A stretch of 12,858 bases of DNA from an uncultured Acidobacteriota bacterium (GTDB taxonomy: Bacteria > Acidobacteriota > JAAYUB01). Position numbers and translations under genes: made by a program. Of the stretch, positions 5,534 through 9,982 are shown one piece after another. The stretch covers positions 1-12,858 of the forward strand of contig CALAMB010000005.1 in the NCBI GenBank assembly GCA_937925645.1. The letters run 5' to 3'. The notes under the pieces were generated by a model. The model was not told the DNA's origin, made no database searches, and saw nothing but the letters and a program-made list of their open reading frames with translations. The stretch's first letter is position 1, and each line of letters begins with the position of its first letter.

Positions 5534-6643
5534 ATGGCTGAAAAAATGAAAGCGGTGGTCAAAACCCGCCCGGAACTCGGCGGCGAACTTTTGGAACGGC
5601 CTCTCCCCAAGATCGCCCCCGACCAGGTGCTGGTAAAGGTGCGGGCGACCTCCATCTGCGGCACCGACGTCCACATCTACAAGTGGGACGCCTGGGCCGC
5701 CAACCGGATCGGTGAGAAGCGCCTCCCCCAGATCATGGGCCACGAGGTGGCCGGCGAGGTCGTCGAGGTGGGCGGCCACGTGAAGCGGGTCAAGGTGGGC
5801 GACTACATCTCGGCCGAGACTCACATCTACGATCCCGGCGACCTGACCGCCCTGTTGGGACAGCTCCACATCGGCGACCACATGAAGATCCTGGGCGTGG
5901 ACTGCGACGGCGCCTTCGCCGAGTATTTCGCCGTGCCGGAGTCGGTGTGCTGGATCAACGACGCGTCGATCCCGCCCGAGCTGGCCACCATCCAGGAGCC
6001 GCTGGGCAACGCCGTGTACACGGTGCTCGGCGAGGACTTCGACGTCGCCGGCAAGACGGTGGTCATCCTGGGCGACGGGCCGGCGGCCCTGCTCGCGGCC
6101 GGTGTCGCCCGCGTGTGCGGCATGGCCAAGATCTTCATCGTGGGCAAGTACGAGTTCAACCTGAAGATCGCCCAGACGATGGGCGCGGACTTCCTGCTCT
6201 ACGCCAACAAGGATGACGTCGACCGCGTGGCCTTCGTCAAGGACCACACCTACGGCGCCGGCGCCGACATCGTGCTGGACATGGCCGGCTCCCCCCAGGC
6301 GCTCACCGAGGGCTTCAAAATGCTGCGCCGCGGCGGCCGGTTCTCCGCGTTCGGCATCGCCTCCGAGTCCCCCACCATGATCGACTACAACAACGGCATC
6401 GTCTTCAAGGGCGCCCAGATCCACGGCATCAACGGCCGGCTCATGTTCGACACCTGGTACCGGGTGCGCAACCTGCTGGCCACCGGCCGCCTCGACATCC
6501 GTCCGGTGATCACCCACATGTTCAGCCTGGACGATTACGTCAAGGGGTTCGATGTCATGCTGGGCCGCCCGCGCCAGTCGGCCAAGGTGGTCCTGTTCCC
6601 CGACGCGGCCGAGTTCGACGCCGCCCGGAAGCGGATGAAGTAG
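5534..6643 (+). CDS. tdh: L-threonine 3-dehydrogenase-like zinc alcohol dehydrogenase
   Basis: This encodes a 369-residue medium-chain dehydrogenase. The expected reaction is oxidation of L-threonine to 2-amino-3-oxobutyrate, which Kbl then cleaves. The catalytic zinc ligands are present: Cys42 in SICGTDVHIYKWD, and His70-Glu71 in MGHEVAGEVV. TDH-type sequence continues with EPLGNAVYT, INGRLMFDTWYRV and PVITHMFSLDDYVKGFD. Oddities: the region that normally holds four structural-zinc cysteines (about residues 95-123) has none. The nucleotide-binding motif is GDGPAA (180-185) instead of GxGPxG. The usual acidic residue after the second beta strand is Gly204. It may be a divergent TDH subfamily or have changed cofactor preference. 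The start is supported by TTAAGGAGAT. The kbl gene downstream supports the assignment. Confidence 0.82.
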   Translation: MAEKMKAVVKTRPELGGELLERPLPKIAPDQVLVKVRATSICGTDVHIYKWDAWAANRIGEKRLPQIMGHEVAGEVVEVGGHVKRVKVGDYISAETHIYDPGDLTALLGQLHIGDHMKILGVDCDGAFAEYFAVPESVCWINDASIPPELATIQEPLGNAVYTVLGEDFDVAGKTVVILGDGPAALLAAGVARVCGMAKIFIVGKYEFNLKIAQTMGADFLLYANKDDVDRVAFVKDHTYGAGADIVLDMAGSPQALTEGFKMLRRGGRFSAFGIASESPTMIDYNNGIVFKGAQIHGINGRLMFDTWYRVRNLLATGRLDIRPVITHMFSLDDYVKGFDVMLGRPRQSAKVVLFPDAAEFDAARKRMK

Positions 6644-6652
6644 CACGGCCGG

Positions 6653-6687
6653 ACATCGGACTTCGGACATCGGAAATCGGGCTTCGG
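6653..6687 (+). repeat. Left heptad array (NNNTCGG x5)
   Basis: There are five consecutive 7-bp units: ACATCGG, ACTTCGG, ACATCGG, AAATCGG and GCTTCGG. They are in exact 7-bp register. The last unit directly abuts the ATG at 6688, so no Shine-Dalgarno sequence precedes that gene. Confidence 0.85.
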
Positions 6688-7125
6688 ATGCAGAATTATC
6701 GGGAATTGCGGGTTTGGCAGCAAGGCATCGAGCTAACCAAAACCGTGTACAGAATGACCGGCTCCTTTCCGCCTGCTGAGCGGTTTGGACTGACCGCCCA
6801 GATGAGACGGGCGGCTGTGTCCGTTCCCTCAAACATCGCCGAAGGATATGCCCGCTCGGGCACGGCTGAGTATTTACGCTTTCTCTCAATCGCAGCCGGG
6901 TCAGTCGCTGAGCTGGAGACCCAGGTGATCCTTAGCTGTGAGCTGGGATTCCTGGTGAAAGACCACCAGGACGAACTCTTGGCTCAATTGGACCTGATCG
7001 GTAAAATGTTGAAAGGGCTGCGAAGATCGCTCGAACCCTATCGACTGAAAGAGGACTCTGAGTGGCCGGTTGATCTAACGGCAGCGGAATCTTCCGGCAA
7101 CTGCAAGCCGGAGGGAATATCTTGA
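6688..7125 (+). CDS. Four-helix-bundle protein, 23S rRNA intervening-sequence (S23) family
   Basis: This encodes 145 residues. NYRELRVWQQGIELTKTVY at the N-terminus, then FPPAERFGLTAQMRRAAVSV, PSNIAEGYARSG and GSVAELETQVIL are the family signature. Members are about 115-125 residues; here about 20-25 extra polar residues follow the last helix. The family was first noted in open frames inside 23S rRNA intervening sequences and includes relatives of the Avd accessory protein of diversity-generating retroelements. Its general function is not settled; nucleic-acid binding by a basic oligomer is suggested for relatives. There is no ribosome site, because the heptad array runs into the ATG. AGA, TTA, CTA, CGA and ATA codons are used, in contrast to the strongly G/C-ending codons of tdh and kbl, which suggests transfer. 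No reverse transcriptase or template repeat is nearby. Confidence 0.88.
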   Translation: MQNYRELRVWQQGIELTKTVYRMTGSFPPAERFGLTAQMRRAAVSVPSNIAEGYARSGTAEYLRFLSIAAGSVAELETQVILSCELGFLVKDHQDELLAQLDLIGKMLKGLRRSLEPYRLKEDSEWPVDLTAAESSGNCKPEGIS

Positions 7126-7184
7126 ACCTCTCCTCTCGTGATCTGTCAGAAAAGCGTGCATGGCTACTCAAACCAACCGATATA

Positions 7185-7219
7185 CCGATGTCCGATTTCC
7201 GAAGTCCAATGTCCGAAAC
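7185..7219 (-). repeat. Right heptad array (CCGANNN x5, inverted)
   Basis: There are five 7-bp units: CCGATGT, CCGATTT, CCGAAGT, CCAATGT and CCGAAAC. They are the reverse complement of the left-array units and are preceded by an 8-bp variant, CCGATATA (7177-7184). The array ends 34 nt before the kbl start codon. Confidence 0.85.
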
Positions 7220-7253
7220 CATTGATTCTAATCCTATCTAAGGAGAATTCATA

Positions 7254-8501
7254 ATGTACGGAAAAATGAAAGGATTCCTCGCCGAGGAGCTGAAGAAGCT
7301 CGAAGAGCAAAAACTTTACAAGCATGAGCGGATCATCGAGAGCGCCCAGGGCGCCGAGATCGTCGTCAAGGGGAAGAAGTGCCTCAACTTCTGCGCCAAC
7401 AACTACCTCGGGCTCTCCTCCCACCCCGAGCTGATCCAGGCCGCCCACGAGGGGATCGACCACCGCGGCTACGGGCTGTCGTCGGTCCGGTTCATCTGCG
7501 GCACCCAGGACATCCACAAGACCCTGGAGCGCAAGGTGTCGGAGTTCCTGGGCATGGATGACACCATCCTGTTCTCCTCCTGCTTCGACGCCAACGGCGC
7601 CGTGTTCGAGCCGCTGCTCGGCGAGGGTGACGCCATCATCAGCGACGCGCTGAACCACGCCTCCATCATCGACGGCGTGCGCCTCTGCAAGGCCCAGCGC
7701 TGGGCCTACAAGCACTCCGACATGCGCGACGTCGAGGAGCTGGACCCGGCCACCGGCAAGACGGCCAAGGGGCTGGAGCGCTGCCTGAAGGAAGCCAACG
7801 AGAAGGGGTGCCGCTTCAAGATGATCGCCACCGACGGCGCCTTCTCCATGGACGGCGACGTCGTCCGGCTGAAGGAGATCTGCGACCTGGCTGAACAGTA
7901 CGACGCCCTGGTCATGGTGGACGACTCCCACGCCTCCGGCTTCATGGGCAAGACCGGCCGGGGCACCCACGAGCACTGCGGCGTCATGGGCCGGGTGGAC
8001 ATCATCACCACCACGTTCGGCAAGGCGCTCGGCGGGGCGTCCGGCGGCTGCATCTCCGGCCGCCAGGAGATCATCGACTGGATGCGCAACAAGGCCCGCC
8101 CGTACCTCTTCTCCAACACCGTGGCCCCGTCCGTCGTCATGGCCACCATCCGGGTCATGGACATGCTCTCCTCCACCACGACGCTGCGCGACAAGCTGGA
8201 GAAGAACACCCAGTATTTCCGCGAGAAGATGACCGCCGCCGGCTTCGACATCATCCCCGGCGTGCATCCCATCACCCCCATCATGTTCGGCAAGTACCCC
8301 GACTGCTCCAAGCTGGCGGTGGACTTCGCCAACGCCATGCTGGACGAGGGGATCTACGTGATCGCCTTCTCCTTCCCCGTCGTGCCGCGGGGCAAGGACC
8401 GCATCCGCGTCCAGATCTCGGCCGCCCACGAGCCGCACCACCTGGAGCAGGCCATCGCCGCGTTCACCAAGGTGGGCCGCAAGCTGAACATGATCCAGTA
8501 G
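7254..8501 (+). CDS. kbl: Glycine C-acetyltransferase (2-amino-3-ketobutyrate CoA ligase)
   Basis: This encodes a 415-residue PLP enzyme of the alpha-oxoamine synthase family. It cleaves 2-amino-3-oxobutyrate with CoA to glycine and acetyl-CoA. NFCANNYLGLSSHPEL, GYGLSSVRFICGTQ and DALNHASIIDGVRLCKA are typical. VDDSHASGF carries the PLP-contacting Asp/His, and TTFGKALGGASGG holds the Schiff-base Lys257. PYLFSNTVAPS and FPVVPRGKDRIRVQISAAH complete the match. Compared with E. coli Kbl there is an insertion of about 13 residues near 162-175 (DPATGKTAKG region). TAAGGAG (7239-7245) lies 8 nt before the ATG. It pairs functionally with tdh, from which the four-helix-bundle cassette now separates it, and it is followed by an intrinsic terminator. 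Confidence 0.95.
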   Translation: MYGKMKGFLAEELKKLEEQKLYKHERIIESAQGAEIVVKGKKCLNFCANNYLGLSSHPELIQAAHEGIDHRGYGLSSVRFICGTQDIHKTLERKVSEFLGMDDTILFSSCFDANGAVFEPLLGEGDAIISDALNHASIIDGVRLCKAQRWAYKHSDMRDVEELDPATGKTAKGLERCLKEANEKGCRFKMIATDGAFSMDGDVVRLKEICDLAEQYDALVMVDDSHASGFMGKTGRGTHEHCGVMGRVDIITTTFGKALGGASGGCISGRQEIIDWMRNKARPYLFSNTVAPSVVMATIRVMDMLSSTTTLRDKLEKNTQYFREKMTAAGFDIIPGVHPITPIMFGKYPDCSKLAVDFANAMLDEGIYVIAFSFPVVPRGKDRIRVQISAAHEPHHLEQAIAAFTKVGRKLNMIQ

Positions 8502-8527
8502 CCGCTTCCGGTTCTCGACTCACACTC

Positions 8528-8551
8528 AGGGGCGCTTCGGCGCCCCTTTTT
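8528..8551 (+). terminator. Intrinsic terminator after kbl
   Basis: AGGGGCGC (8528-8535) and GCGCCCCT (8540-8547) form a perfect 8-bp stem closed by a stable TTCG tetraloop. A run of five T (8547-8551) follows. It lies 27 nt after the kbl stop codon and ends the tdh-kbl transcript. Confidence 0.93.
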
Positions 8552-8575
8552 CATTCAGCAGCGAGCATGTTACCA

Positions 8576-8632
<57 letters not shown>

Positions 8633-8633
8633 G

Positions 8634-8681
8634 CGGTTCGCTGGCTCGCTGGATCGCCGGTTCGCCGCCTCGCCGGTTCGG
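8634..8681 (+). repeat. CGGTTCGC octamer array (left)
   Basis: Six consecutive 8-bp units follow the heptads: CGGTTCGC, TGGCTCGC, TGGATCGC, CGGTTCGC, CGCCTCGC and CGGTTCGG. The period is exactly 8 bp. Read as codons they give RFAGS-like strings, but I see no credible gene here. Confidence 0.8.
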
Positions 8682-8688
8682 TGGAACG

Positions 8689-8720
8689 CAGGCGGGATGC
8701 CTGAGCCACTTTCTCCCGCC
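8689..8720. repeat. Alternative hairpins between the repeat arrays
   Basis: Two mutually exclusive stems share one strand. CAGGC (8689-8693) pairs with GCCTG (8699-8703), and GGCGGGA (8691-8697) pairs perfectly with TCCCGCC (8714-8720). The stretch 8682-8758 otherwise holds no supported gene. Confidence 0.45.
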
Positions 8721-8758
8721 AATAGGATCTTCGGCATTCCATTGACAAAAAGAAATGC

Positions 8759-8785
8759 TTGGCGTCTTTGCGCCTTCGCGCGCCT
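8759..8785 (+). repeat. GGCGTCTTTGCG phrase, dispersed repeat copy
   Basis: GGCGTCTTTGCGCCTTCGCG (8761-8780) parallels GGCATCTTTGCGTCTCAGCG at 155-174, with mismatches at only a few positions. Both lie in non-coding gaps, which suggests a dispersed short repeat family in this genome. Confidence 0.55.
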
Positions 8786-8818
8786 CTCAACCACCACCCG
8801 AACACACGCCGCAGGAGA

Positions 8819-8850
8819 CGGTTCGCCGGTTCGCAGATTCACCGGCTCTC
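8819..8850 (+). repeat. CGGTTCGC octamer array (right)
   Basis: There are four 8-bp units in the same orientation as the left octamers: CGGTTCGC, CGGTTCGC, AGATTCAC and CGGCTCTC. Unlike the heptads, the octamers are direct on both sides. Confidence 0.7.
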
Positions 8851-8853
8851 AAA

Positions 8854-8888
8854 TCAACCCTCAACTCTCAACCCTCAACCATCAACGG
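8854..8888 (-). repeat. TCAACCC heptad array, inverted partner of 8576-8632
   Basis: There are five 7-bp units: TCAACCC, TCAACTC, TCAACCC, TCAACCA and TCAACGG. They are the reverse complement of the GGGTTGA units and keep the same period. The two arrays bracket about 220 bp that has no convincing gene. From the terminator (8551) to 8965 I see only these repeats and a weak promoter-like site. Confidence 0.88.
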
Positions 8889-8965
8889 TTAATAAAGCAG
8901 CGTCCCTGAACTCCCGCCGTGCTCCGGCCATCTGTTCCTGTGTTAGAATGACAGGGGTACAGGTC

Positions 8966-9982
8966 ATGCGTTCCACGATCATCAGACGACGCAAAGTTCT
9001 CCTGGCGGCGATGCTGGCCGGCGCGCTGACGGCCGGGGCCCAGGACGTGCCCAAGACGAAGGGCGTCGAGGAGCCGCCGCCCCGCGGCGCCGCGACGAGC
9101 GTGACCGCCGACGTGTCGGCCGTCCGCTTCAACGCCCAGGTGCGCGACCGCAAGGGCAACCTGGTCACGGGCCTCGGCCGCGACGCCTTCCAGGTGCTGG
9201 AGGACGGCCGGCCCCAGCCCATCATCTACTTCGAAACCGACGCGTCGCCGGTGTCCGTCGCGCTCCTCATCGAATTCAGCCGGCCCACCGCCGGCATCCT
9301 CCAGGACATGCGGGAATCCGCCTACCTGCTGGTCAAGGATCTGGCGGCCGAGGATCATTGCGCCCTCGTGGTCTTCAACAACCGCCCCGAGATCGTCGTC
9401 GATTTCACCCGGGACCGGGACGAGATCCTGACCGCCGTCGCCCGCATGAATTTCACCTTCCTGTCCTCCATCGAGCTCCTGAACAGCGTCCGGTTCACCG
9501 TCACCCGGATGAGCGAGGTACCGGGCAAGCGCGGGATCGTGCTCCTGGCCACCGGGCTGAGCGAGAGCGGCGGCCGCCTGAACGAGCTGTCCCGCCAGCT
9601 GCAGTTGATGGGCGTGCCCATCTACGCCGTCTCCATGGGCCAGCACGCGCGCAACGTGCTCGATCCGCTCCTCACCACGTCGGACCACCACATGTTCTTC
9701 CAGGCGGACCACCGCCTGCGCACCCTGGCCGAAAACTCGGGCGGGGCGGCGTTCTTCCCCACCCACCCCAACGCGTTCCCCAAGACGATGGAAACCGTCC
9801 GCACGTTCCTGAAACACCAGTACCTCCTGGCTTACGCGCCGCCCGATCCGGCCGACCACAAGCGCAAGCGCAAGCTGGCCATCACCGCCCGGGCCGATCT
9901 GGATCGCGACGGCACCGCCGAACCGCTGGAAGTCGTTCACGTGCGCCAGTATGTGCTGGGCGGATCGTCCGCCAAGCCATAG
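8966..9982 (+). CDS. Secreted VWFA-related Acidobacterial domain protein
   Basis: This encodes 338 residues from the ATG at 8966. That start has AGGGGT (8953-8958) 7 nt upstream and begins directly with a signal peptide (RRRKVLLAAMLAGALTAGAQ). The alternative ATG at 8948 lacks a ribosome site, and TAGAAT at 8944-8949 could be an extended -10. Residues about 50-90 (VRFNAQVRDRKGNLVTGL...FQVLEDGRPQ) are the N-terminal beta module typical of this Acidobacterial family, followed by a von Willebrand A fold (about 96-290). The metal site is degenerate: DxSxS reads EFSRP (103-107), and the third motif has LLATG where TDG is usual. It probably acts extracytoplasmically as a binding scaffold. Function is unknown. 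It precedes the receptor gene by 271 bp with separate signals. Confidence 0.85.
   Translation: MRSTIIRRRKVLLAAMLAGALTAGAQDVPKTKGVEEPPPRGAATSVTADVSAVRFNAQVRDRKGNLVTGLGRDAFQVLEDGRPQPIIYFETDASPVSVALLIEFSRPTAGILQDMRESAYLLVKDLAAEDHCALVVFNNRPEIVVDFTRDRDEILTAVARMNFTFLSSIELLNSVRFTVTRMSEVPGKRGIVLLATGLSESGGRLNELSRQLQLMGVPIYAVSMGQHARNVLDPLLTTSDHHMFFQADHRLRTLAENSGGAAFFPTHPNAFPKTMETVRTFLKHQYLLAYAPPDPADHKRKRKLAITARADLDRDGTAEPLEVVHVRQYVLGGSSAKP

What the first reader, a model, noticed from the sequence alone, without database searches (positions are those of the whole stretch)
6650..7219. Four-helix-bundle gene in an inverted-heptad cassette splitting the tdh-kbl operon
Seen: five NNNTCGG heptads and five inverted CCGANNN heptads bracket a single four-helix-bundle gene. 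Its codon use differs from both neighbours, and excising the block leaves a 40-nt tdh-kbl gap. Known: this protein family occurs inside 23S rRNA intervening sequences and near retroelements. Inference: the arms and gene are a mobile or domesticated unit that inserts between co-transcribed genes, not only in rRNA.
Basis: partly seen in the sequence, partly recalled or inferred. Interest (0 to 1): 0.78.

Follow-up and report, generated by a model that had tools for sequence, protein, structure and literature searches.

The report
One-gene mobile element with heptad ends
A small gene sitting between two enzyme genes looks like a jumping-DNA unit whose two ends are mirror-image rows of a seven-letter repeat, and units built this way, each with its own seven-letter word, occur in several bacterial groups and may explain puzzling seven-letter repeats scattered through bacterial genomes.

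Summary
In detail: five NNNTCGG heptads and five inverted heptads (one degenerate) bracket a PF05635 four-helix-bundle (23S-IVP/S23p) gene between tdh and kbl. It is one case of a widespread architecture: strict inverted arms flank 88/104 PF05635 genes in Acidobacteriota, 9/11 on plasmids, 11/15 in viral contigs and 41/55 mostly Bacteroidota, against 4/400 random intervals and 1/57 kbl flanks. The repeat is usually 7 nt, differs between elements and tracks the protein: unit similarity 0.76 in pairs ≥60% identical versus 0.38 overall, 0/2000 permutations. The window and three related genomes carry three non-orthologous elements at tdh-kbl: gene dS ≥2.3, flanking dS ≤0.18. In Nostocales plasmids a 423-nt element has empty sites and a 5-bp duplication. 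Scattered arrays use the genus's own units (36/53) and were absent from sampled DNA of 20 Acidobacteriota genomes lacking the gene. Arms show no RNA-pairing bias (G·U 226, A·C 223). Best reading: a mobile element with tandem-heptad terminal inverted repeats, the protein probably recognising its unit; how it moves is unknown.

The parts
6650..6687 (+). left arm: five NNNTCGG heptads plus CGG; G-rich strand reads inward; ends at the start codon of the gene
6688..7125 (+). PF05635 (23S rRNA intervening-sequence protein, S23p-like four-helix bundle), 145 aa; only + strand ORF of at least 80 aa between the arms
   Evidence: PDB 2gsc, E 1.7e-29
7126..7184 (+). spacer between stop codon and right arm
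7185..7219 (+). right arm: inverted heptads CCGATGT CCGATTT CCGAAGT CCAATGT CCGAAAC
8583..8630 (+). second array of the window, AGGGTTG x 6.9: left arm of a gene-less inverted pair, possibly a non-autonomous or decayed relative
8854..8886 (+). TCAACCC array x 4.7: inverted counterpart of 8583-8630; in G001 the homology jumps from 8703 to 8923, so this side has no counterpart there

Best explanation
Positions 6650-7219 are a small mobile element: one PF05635 gene bounded by terminal inverted repeats that are themselves tandem arrays of a 7-nt unit. Shown by comparison with relatives: elements of this build are present at some intergenic points and absent from the same points in closely similar DNA; two clean cases carry a 5-bp target duplication; different elements occupy the same point in close relatives; and the same units are scattered through the genome without the gene. 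In the cases looked at, the insertion point often lies right behind a stop codon. Inferred: the four-helix-bundle protein binds its own unit (as DNA or single-stranded DNA) and so defines the element's ends; the inward G-rich polarity of both arms is part of that signal; gene-less arrays are non-autonomous derivatives or remnants. Not known: which enzyme cuts and joins DNA. The protein may do it itself or may be a specificity factor for an enzyme supplied from elsewhere.
For: Arms at 88/104, 9/11, 11/15 and 41/55 PF05635 genes vs 4/400 and 1/57 controls; 79/94 when extra copies at known shared loci are left out of the first set. Loose score: own arm pairs at least 20 in 84/104 Acidobacteriota vs 12/312 mismatched pairs. 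Matched inverted arrays have period 7 in 93 of 113. Three non-orthologous elements at tdh-kbl in four related genomes and two kinds at locus B. Filled and empty site with 423-nt insert and GTAAT duplication, flanks 1124/1146 and 1096/1127 identical; a 78% similar element with the same heptads at another place with TTCTA on both sides. Unit similarity follows protein identity. Scattered arrays share the element units (36/53 vs mean 5.3 shuffled, 4.1 foreign) and occur in 11/20 stretches of IVP-positive but 0/20 of IVP-negative Acidobacteriota. Arms read inward are G-rich in 87, C-rich in 5, equal in 21 of 113. No RNA-stem bias. Purifying selection on the protein: dN 0.31-0.40 with dS 2.3 or more, or saturated.
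Against: No catalytic domain was found, and I know of no transposase chemistry for PF05635. A general search for target duplications gave only a weak excess (shared 5-mers 25 of 141, null mean 16.5, null maximum 27). In the window itself no near-identical empty site was found, so its exact ends and any duplication are unknown. The four tdh-kbl proteins fall within one 10-row clade, so a special tie of one subfamily to this site is possible. Most scattered arrays in G001 are not in matched inverted pairs (3 inverted, 2 direct in 400 kb). The Mantel correlation over all pairs is weak (r 0.09, 107 of 2000 permutations as high). In the mostly Bacteroidota sample arrays also occur in IVP-negative genomes (3/20 vs 11/20 stretches at score 17; 4 vs 9 arrays at score 20). 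About a quarter of the Bacteroidota-like and viral members show no strict arms.
Confidence: 0.8

Rival explanations
1. Non-autonomous element: a transposase or reverse transcriptase encoded elsewhere moves any DNA with suitable ends, and the PF05635 gene is an accessory or passenger.
For: The members scanned match no Pfam family but PF05635; a paper notes that the family resembles Avd, the accessory protein of diversity-generating retroelements (PMC10053308, passages); inserts with inverted heptads and no annotated gene exist (L455, L456).
Against: No second gene was seen inside the window's element or the plasmid elements with annotation; array density follows presence of the PF05635 gene; the unit follows the protein sequence, which suggests the protein itself reads the unit.
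Confidence: 0.35
2. The heptad arrays are ordinary slippage products (microsatellites) and the PF05635 gene merely inserts into them.
For: Arrays occur without the gene and in nested clusters; polymerase slippage was proposed before for heptamer excess (PMC4679880 and PMC4692102, passages).
Against: The two fetched empty sites of plasmid site 1 have no array; sampled DNA of 20 IVP-negative Acidobacteriota genomes held no array of period 7 or 8 at score 17 and one at score 14 (391,638 bases); arms are inverted with a mostly inward G-rich polarity.
Confidence: 0.08
3. An RNA-level element like the 23S rRNA intervening sequence: the arms pair in the transcript and RNase III or another enzyme processes the mRNA; the gene is a stable operon member.
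For: The transcript of 6640-7250 can pair its arms (z -4.9); 23S intervening sequences carry the same protein family, inverted ends and RNase III processing, and the Coxiella one has tandem heptamers before the ORF (PMC4990558, passages).
Against: Mismatches between arms show no preference for G-U over A-C in the sense strand (226 vs 223 in 103 elements); elements at one site differ and some sites are empty.
Confidence: 0.1
4. Elements at tdh-kbl are swapped by ordinary homologous recombination of the whole locus between species, not by transposition.
For: At locus B, G001 and G003 share a near-identical element and a 97% upstream flank although the match running through the element and downstream is 92%, as a recombination tract would give.
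Against: Recombination moves existing alleles but does not create different elements at one point; tdh and kbl stay 96-99% identical while the genes between them are saturated or nearly so at silent sites.
Confidence: 0.15

Closest known systems
23S rRNA intervening sequences (IVS) with an S23p ORF
   Same: Same protein family (PF05635), single ORF, inverted ends that can form a stem; the Coxiella IVS even has three tandem heptamers GACAGAT plus a degenerate fourth before the ORF (PMC4990558, passages).
   Different: Here the site is an intergenic gap between protein-coding genes, the arms are tandem heptads on both sides, and no sign of selection for RNA pairing was found.
RAYT-REP systems (recalled)
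   Same: One gene among copies of a short repeat, many gene-less copies of the same repeat elsewhere in the genome, repeat type tied to the protein.
   Different: No Y1/HUH tyrosine transposase domain; the repeat is a 6-9-nt tandem unit and not a folded palindrome.
Foldback-like transposons (Foldback, Galileo) of Drosophila
   Same: Terminal inverted repeats that are internally repetitive (PMC3573991, abstract in listing).
   Different: Eukaryotic; Galileo has a P-element-type transposase (same abstract); ends much longer (recalled).
Heptamer repeats of cyanobacteria (STRR, recalled name), Xanthomonas, Nostoc and Beggiatoaceae
   Same: Dispersed intergenic tandem heptamers; in Xanthomonas some lie as converging pairs (PMC4692102, passages; PMC4679880, passages).
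   Different: The passages seen describe the arrays without a linked mobile gene and discuss slippage or regulation; here they are tied to a gene family.
Avd of diversity-generating retroelements
   Same: Related four-helix-bundle fold; PF05635 was reported to resemble Avd (PMC10053308, passages).
   Different: No reverse transcriptase among the six window proteins scanned; template and variable repeats not searched for.

Membership tests
PF05635 (23S_rRNA_IVP) | profile score over the curated cut-off | tested here: met
   125 bits, cut-off 33.8
23S rRNA intervening sequence | located inside a 23S rRNA gene | tested here: not met
   lies between two protein-coding genes; no Rfam match in 6500-9000
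23S rRNA intervening sequence | ends complementary, S23p ORF inside | tested here: met
23S rRNA intervening sequence | excised from the transcript by RNase III | not testable with these tools
   arms show no G-U excess, which argues against an RNA role but is not a test of cleavage
TIR-bounded transposable element | terminal inverted repeats | tested here: met
TIR-bounded transposable element | target-site duplication | tested here: inconclusive
   5-bp duplications at two relatives' sites; not determinable in the window; general test only a weak excess
TIR-bounded transposable element | filled and empty sites in near-identical DNA | tested here: inconclusive
   met for relatives on plasmids; for the window only a distant empty tdh-kbl gap
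Classical insertion sequence | known transposase gene (DDE, HUH, serine, tyrosine) | tested here: not met
   the only Pfam family matched by the ORF is PF05635
RAYT-REP | Y1/HUH tyrosine transposase | tested here: not met
RAYT-REP | gene-less copies of the same repeat dispersed in the genome | tested here: met
   in the nearest genome, not the window's own: 36 of 53 arrays in 400 kb of G001 match one of eight genus units
Diversity-generating retroelement | reverse transcriptase with template and variable repeats | tested here: inconclusive
   six window proteins scanned, none a reverse transcriptase; the rest was not searched for it

The most novel reading that the evidence does not exclude
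PF05635 four-helix-bundle proteins are the recognition, and perhaps catalytic, proteins of an undescribed class of bacterial mobile elements in which each protein lineage reads its own roughly 7-nt DNA word, repeated in tandem at both ends. Word and protein change together, and the heptanucleotide repeats long noticed in bacterial genomes (cyanobacteria, Xanthomonas, Beggiatoaceae) are largely the ends and remnants of such elements.
Probability: 0.4. Interest if true: 0.95.

Novelty: new variant of a known kind. Interest (0 to 1): 0.85.

Why it matters
PF05635 is a very common family (7,933 relatives among the 7,998 candidates scored in one search); PMC4990558 says of these proteins that they have no known function (passage). 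The data give the family a setting, a one-gene mobile element, and a testable partner, its own 7-nt unit. They also offer an origin for tandem heptamers in bacterial genomes, for which the passages seen discuss polymerase slippage or regulation. The family's presence between cas genes (18 genes in cas loci reported in PMC3936711, passages) may be insertion rather than a part in immunity. If the protein reads the unit, many natural protein-word pairs are at hand for learning a recognition code.

Tried and rejected
RNA-stem hypothesis: tested by G-U against A-C mismatches and not supported. Single ancient insertion at tdh-kbl with fast divergence: considered after the tree placed the four proteins in one 10-row clade, rejected because silent sites in the gene are saturated or nearly so while flanking dS is 0.04-0.18. 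A general target-duplication signature: only a weak excess; exact ends are poorly defined by arm alignment, so the claim rests on the clean cases. A first loose arm score let 26 of 240 random intervals and 2 of 57 kbl flanks reach 20, so a stricter score was used; its threshold of 14 was set in the same script that gave the controls. Flank searches for L187 and L189 (G001:C24, G001:C64) found no corresponding region around the element in G002 or G003: no information. At plasmid sites 3 and 4 element-free relatives exist, but at about 90-91% identity with local changes, so no duplication could be read.

Rows left out: in Acidobacteriota 109 elements were taken, 34 from the loci fetched by place; six were dropped for contig ends, and five near-full-length places and the shorter fragments of the table were not fetched. 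L404 (weak), L380 and L401 (short flank) were dropped from the Bacteroidota-like set, which holds the loci the tool returned and not every match. Of 32 plasmid records with a match, 11 were fetched for the arm count; L449, L459 and L460 came later and are not in it. Of 22 viral loci, 15 were used; the other seven are 95-100% like one of them over the gene. The sense-strand pairing test used Acidobacteriota, plasmid and viral elements only. The list of eight units left out the genus's 6-nt units.

Full report
What is in the window. Between tdh (5534-6643) and kbl (7254-8501) lie a left array of five NNNTCGG heptads (6653-6687), a 145-aa PF05635 gene starting at 6688, and a right array of five inverted heptads (7185-7219), one of which departs from the pattern. 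The gene has GC3 0.63 against 0.94 and 0.96 for its neighbours. The window's own assembly is not held; the nearest genome, G001, holds a contig of the same length and content as one of an Acidobacteriota MAG (JAKQOW01).

The same site in relatives. G001, G002 and G003 (one genus) all carry a PF05635 gene in inverted heptads at the same place between tdh and kbl, but the units differ: ACATCGG in the window, AGGCTCG in G001, ACCTGGG in G002 and G003. tdh and kbl have dS 0.04-0.18 between the four genomes, whereas the PF05635 genes have dS 2.3, 3.2 or saturated with dN 0.31-0.40, except the near-identical G002-G003 pair. They are therefore not one vertically inherited gene, and the protein is under purifying selection. 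Same-order G006 has tdh and kbl 22 nt apart with no element. In a tree of 257 proteins the four fall in one 10-row clade (support 89) with database proteins of unknown context, so elements of one subfamily may return to this site. A second locus (G001:C103, G003:C94, G002:C15) repeats the pattern: near-identical elements in G001 and G003 and a different one, with stop codons in the gene, in G002 (gene dS 1.4-1.5); between G001 and G002 the sequence changes at the arm edges. A third locus holds a PF05635 element in G003, but in G001 nested arrays without the gene, several with the units of other elements of the genus.

How general it is. PF05635 matches occur in 31 of 60 Acidobacteriota genomes (29 over the curated cut-off). 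I analysed 104 genes of this group including the window, 11 on plasmids (mostly cyanobacterial), 15 in IMG/VR contigs and 55 in genomes reached through kbl loci, mostly Bacteroidota. With a strict arm score, 88, 9, 11 and 41 of these reach a level reached by 4 of 400 random intervals and 1 of 57 kbl flanks; leaving out extra copies at known shared loci the first figure is 79 of 94. With the looser score, own pairs beat mismatched pairs 84/104 to 12/312, 9/11 to 2/33, 11/15 to 1/45 and 39/55 to 2/165, but 26 of 240 random intervals also reach it. Matched inverted arrays on both sides were called in 113 elements: period 7 in 93, 8 in 13, 6 in 4, 9 in 3. Reading inward the arms are G-rich in 87, C-rich in 5 and even in 21 (orthologous copies not removed).

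Unit and protein go together. Taking one element per known locus (107), 31 pairs with at least 60% protein identity have mean unit similarity 0.76 against 0.38 for all pairs; none of 2000 permutations reached it. The correlation over all pairs is weak (r 0.09; 107 of 2000 permutations as high), because below about 50% identity unit similarity is close to background. An example: four elements in four genomes (L355, L407, L386, L364), the last three 61-76% identical to the first, all use AGATTTG/AGATATG. Shared descent of gene and arms would also give such a tie, so this suggests but does not prove recognition.

Arrays without the gene. In 400 kb of G001, on five contigs without a PF05635 match, there are 53 arrays of period 7 or 8. 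36 match one of eight units that flank PF05635 genes in the genus (at least 6 of 7 letters), against a mean of 5.3 (maximum 11) for shuffled units and 4.1 (maximum 12) for units of other genera. They are clustered, mainly on one contig, and only three matched inverted pairs (and two direct) were seen. In 20 stretches (386,624 bases) from 14 PF05635-positive Acidobacteriota genomes, chosen away from the PF05635 places, 30 arrays were found, in 11 stretches; in 20 stretches (391,638 bases) from 20 negative genomes none (at a lower score 44 against 1; Fisher p 1.5e-4 with stretches taken as independent). Relatedness was not controlled. In the second sample, mostly Bacteroidota, it was 22 in 400,000 bases of 10 positive genomes against 5 in 310,613 bases of 9 negative ones; 11/20 against 3/20 stretches, and 9 against 4 arrays at a higher score. 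One of the five is poly-A-like and three lie on one stretch. For this sample the table of PF05635 places was cut short, so nearness to a gene cannot be ruled out.

Direct evidence of insertion. On conjugative MOBP plasmids of Nostocales, T. variabilis ATCC 29413 and Scytonema NIES-4073 carry a PF05635 element one gene upstream of a virB10-type gene (the strain 0441 record matches along its whole length but was not fetched); Nostoc linckia NIES-25 and Aulosira laxa NIES-50 do not (both fetched; four more records have the same short length in the listing); Nostoc C052 has what looks like a decayed remnant. The insert is 423 nt, with GTAAT on both sides and once in the empty site; flanks are 1124/1146 and 1096/1127 identical. 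Two plasmids of Nostoc ATCC 53789 carry elements at different points of a homologous region. One is 78% identical to the T. variabilis element, with the same heptads, a dissimilar left flank (103 of 179 aligned positions identical) and TTCTA on both sides and once in the other plasmid, where one further base differs. At another plasmid site two records carry an element, two are free of it and two carry inverted heptad inserts without an annotated gene, one with GTCA at both edges. A blind search for short duplications around 141 elements gave only a weak excess.

What it does. RNA pairing was the natural guess, since 23S rRNA intervening sequences share the protein and inverted ends (PMC4990558, passages). 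The transcript can indeed fold, but mismatches between arms are G-U 226 times and A-C 223 times in the sense strand over 103 elements, so pairing seems to be a matter of DNA. I therefore read the block as a mobile element whose protein recognises its own unit. Recognition is inferred from co-variation, and the DNA-joining step is unknown.

Novelty. Ten literature searches were answered in an open-access library, and passages of five papers were seen. No title or abstract start listed there describes PF05635 genes in heptad inverted repeats as mobile elements; one search listed only 25 of 5,646 papers. The nearest are the Coxiella intervening sequence with heptamers before the ORF and papers on heptamer repeats without such a gene in the passages read. 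Subscription papers are not covered, so novelty is provisional.

Noticed in passing
window 8583-8886: A second, gene-less inverted heptad pair (AGGGTTG)n / (TCAACCC)n enclosing direct octad arrays of the GGTTCGCC type; G001 lacks the right half.
   Followed up: partly
L088 and L095: PF05635 genes between cas6 and cas4 on plasmids of Pseudanabaena and Anabaena; with the 18 cas-locus members in PMC3936711 this may be repeated insertion into CRISPR operons.
   Followed up: no
G001:C34 (L291-L294): One contig holds 54 of the 87 arrays (periods 6-9) found in 400 kb, with nested and duplicated clusters of several units.
   Followed up: partly
G001-G003, query L179:1800-3875: An octad array of the GGGTGAAT type is dispersed in dozens of places over three congeneric genomes (list cut short).
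   Followed up: no
L456 (Nostoc C057 p057_H): Insert with inverted (ATTCAAA)n arms, no annotated gene and GTCA at both edges, at a site that is free of it in another plasmid (L458).
   Followed up: partly
L004/L181/L184, L005, L242: A subset of elements uses 6-nt units instead of 7; four of the 113 matched pairs have period 6, and L004, L005, L181, L184 and L242 fall in one six-row clade of the tree.
   Followed up: no
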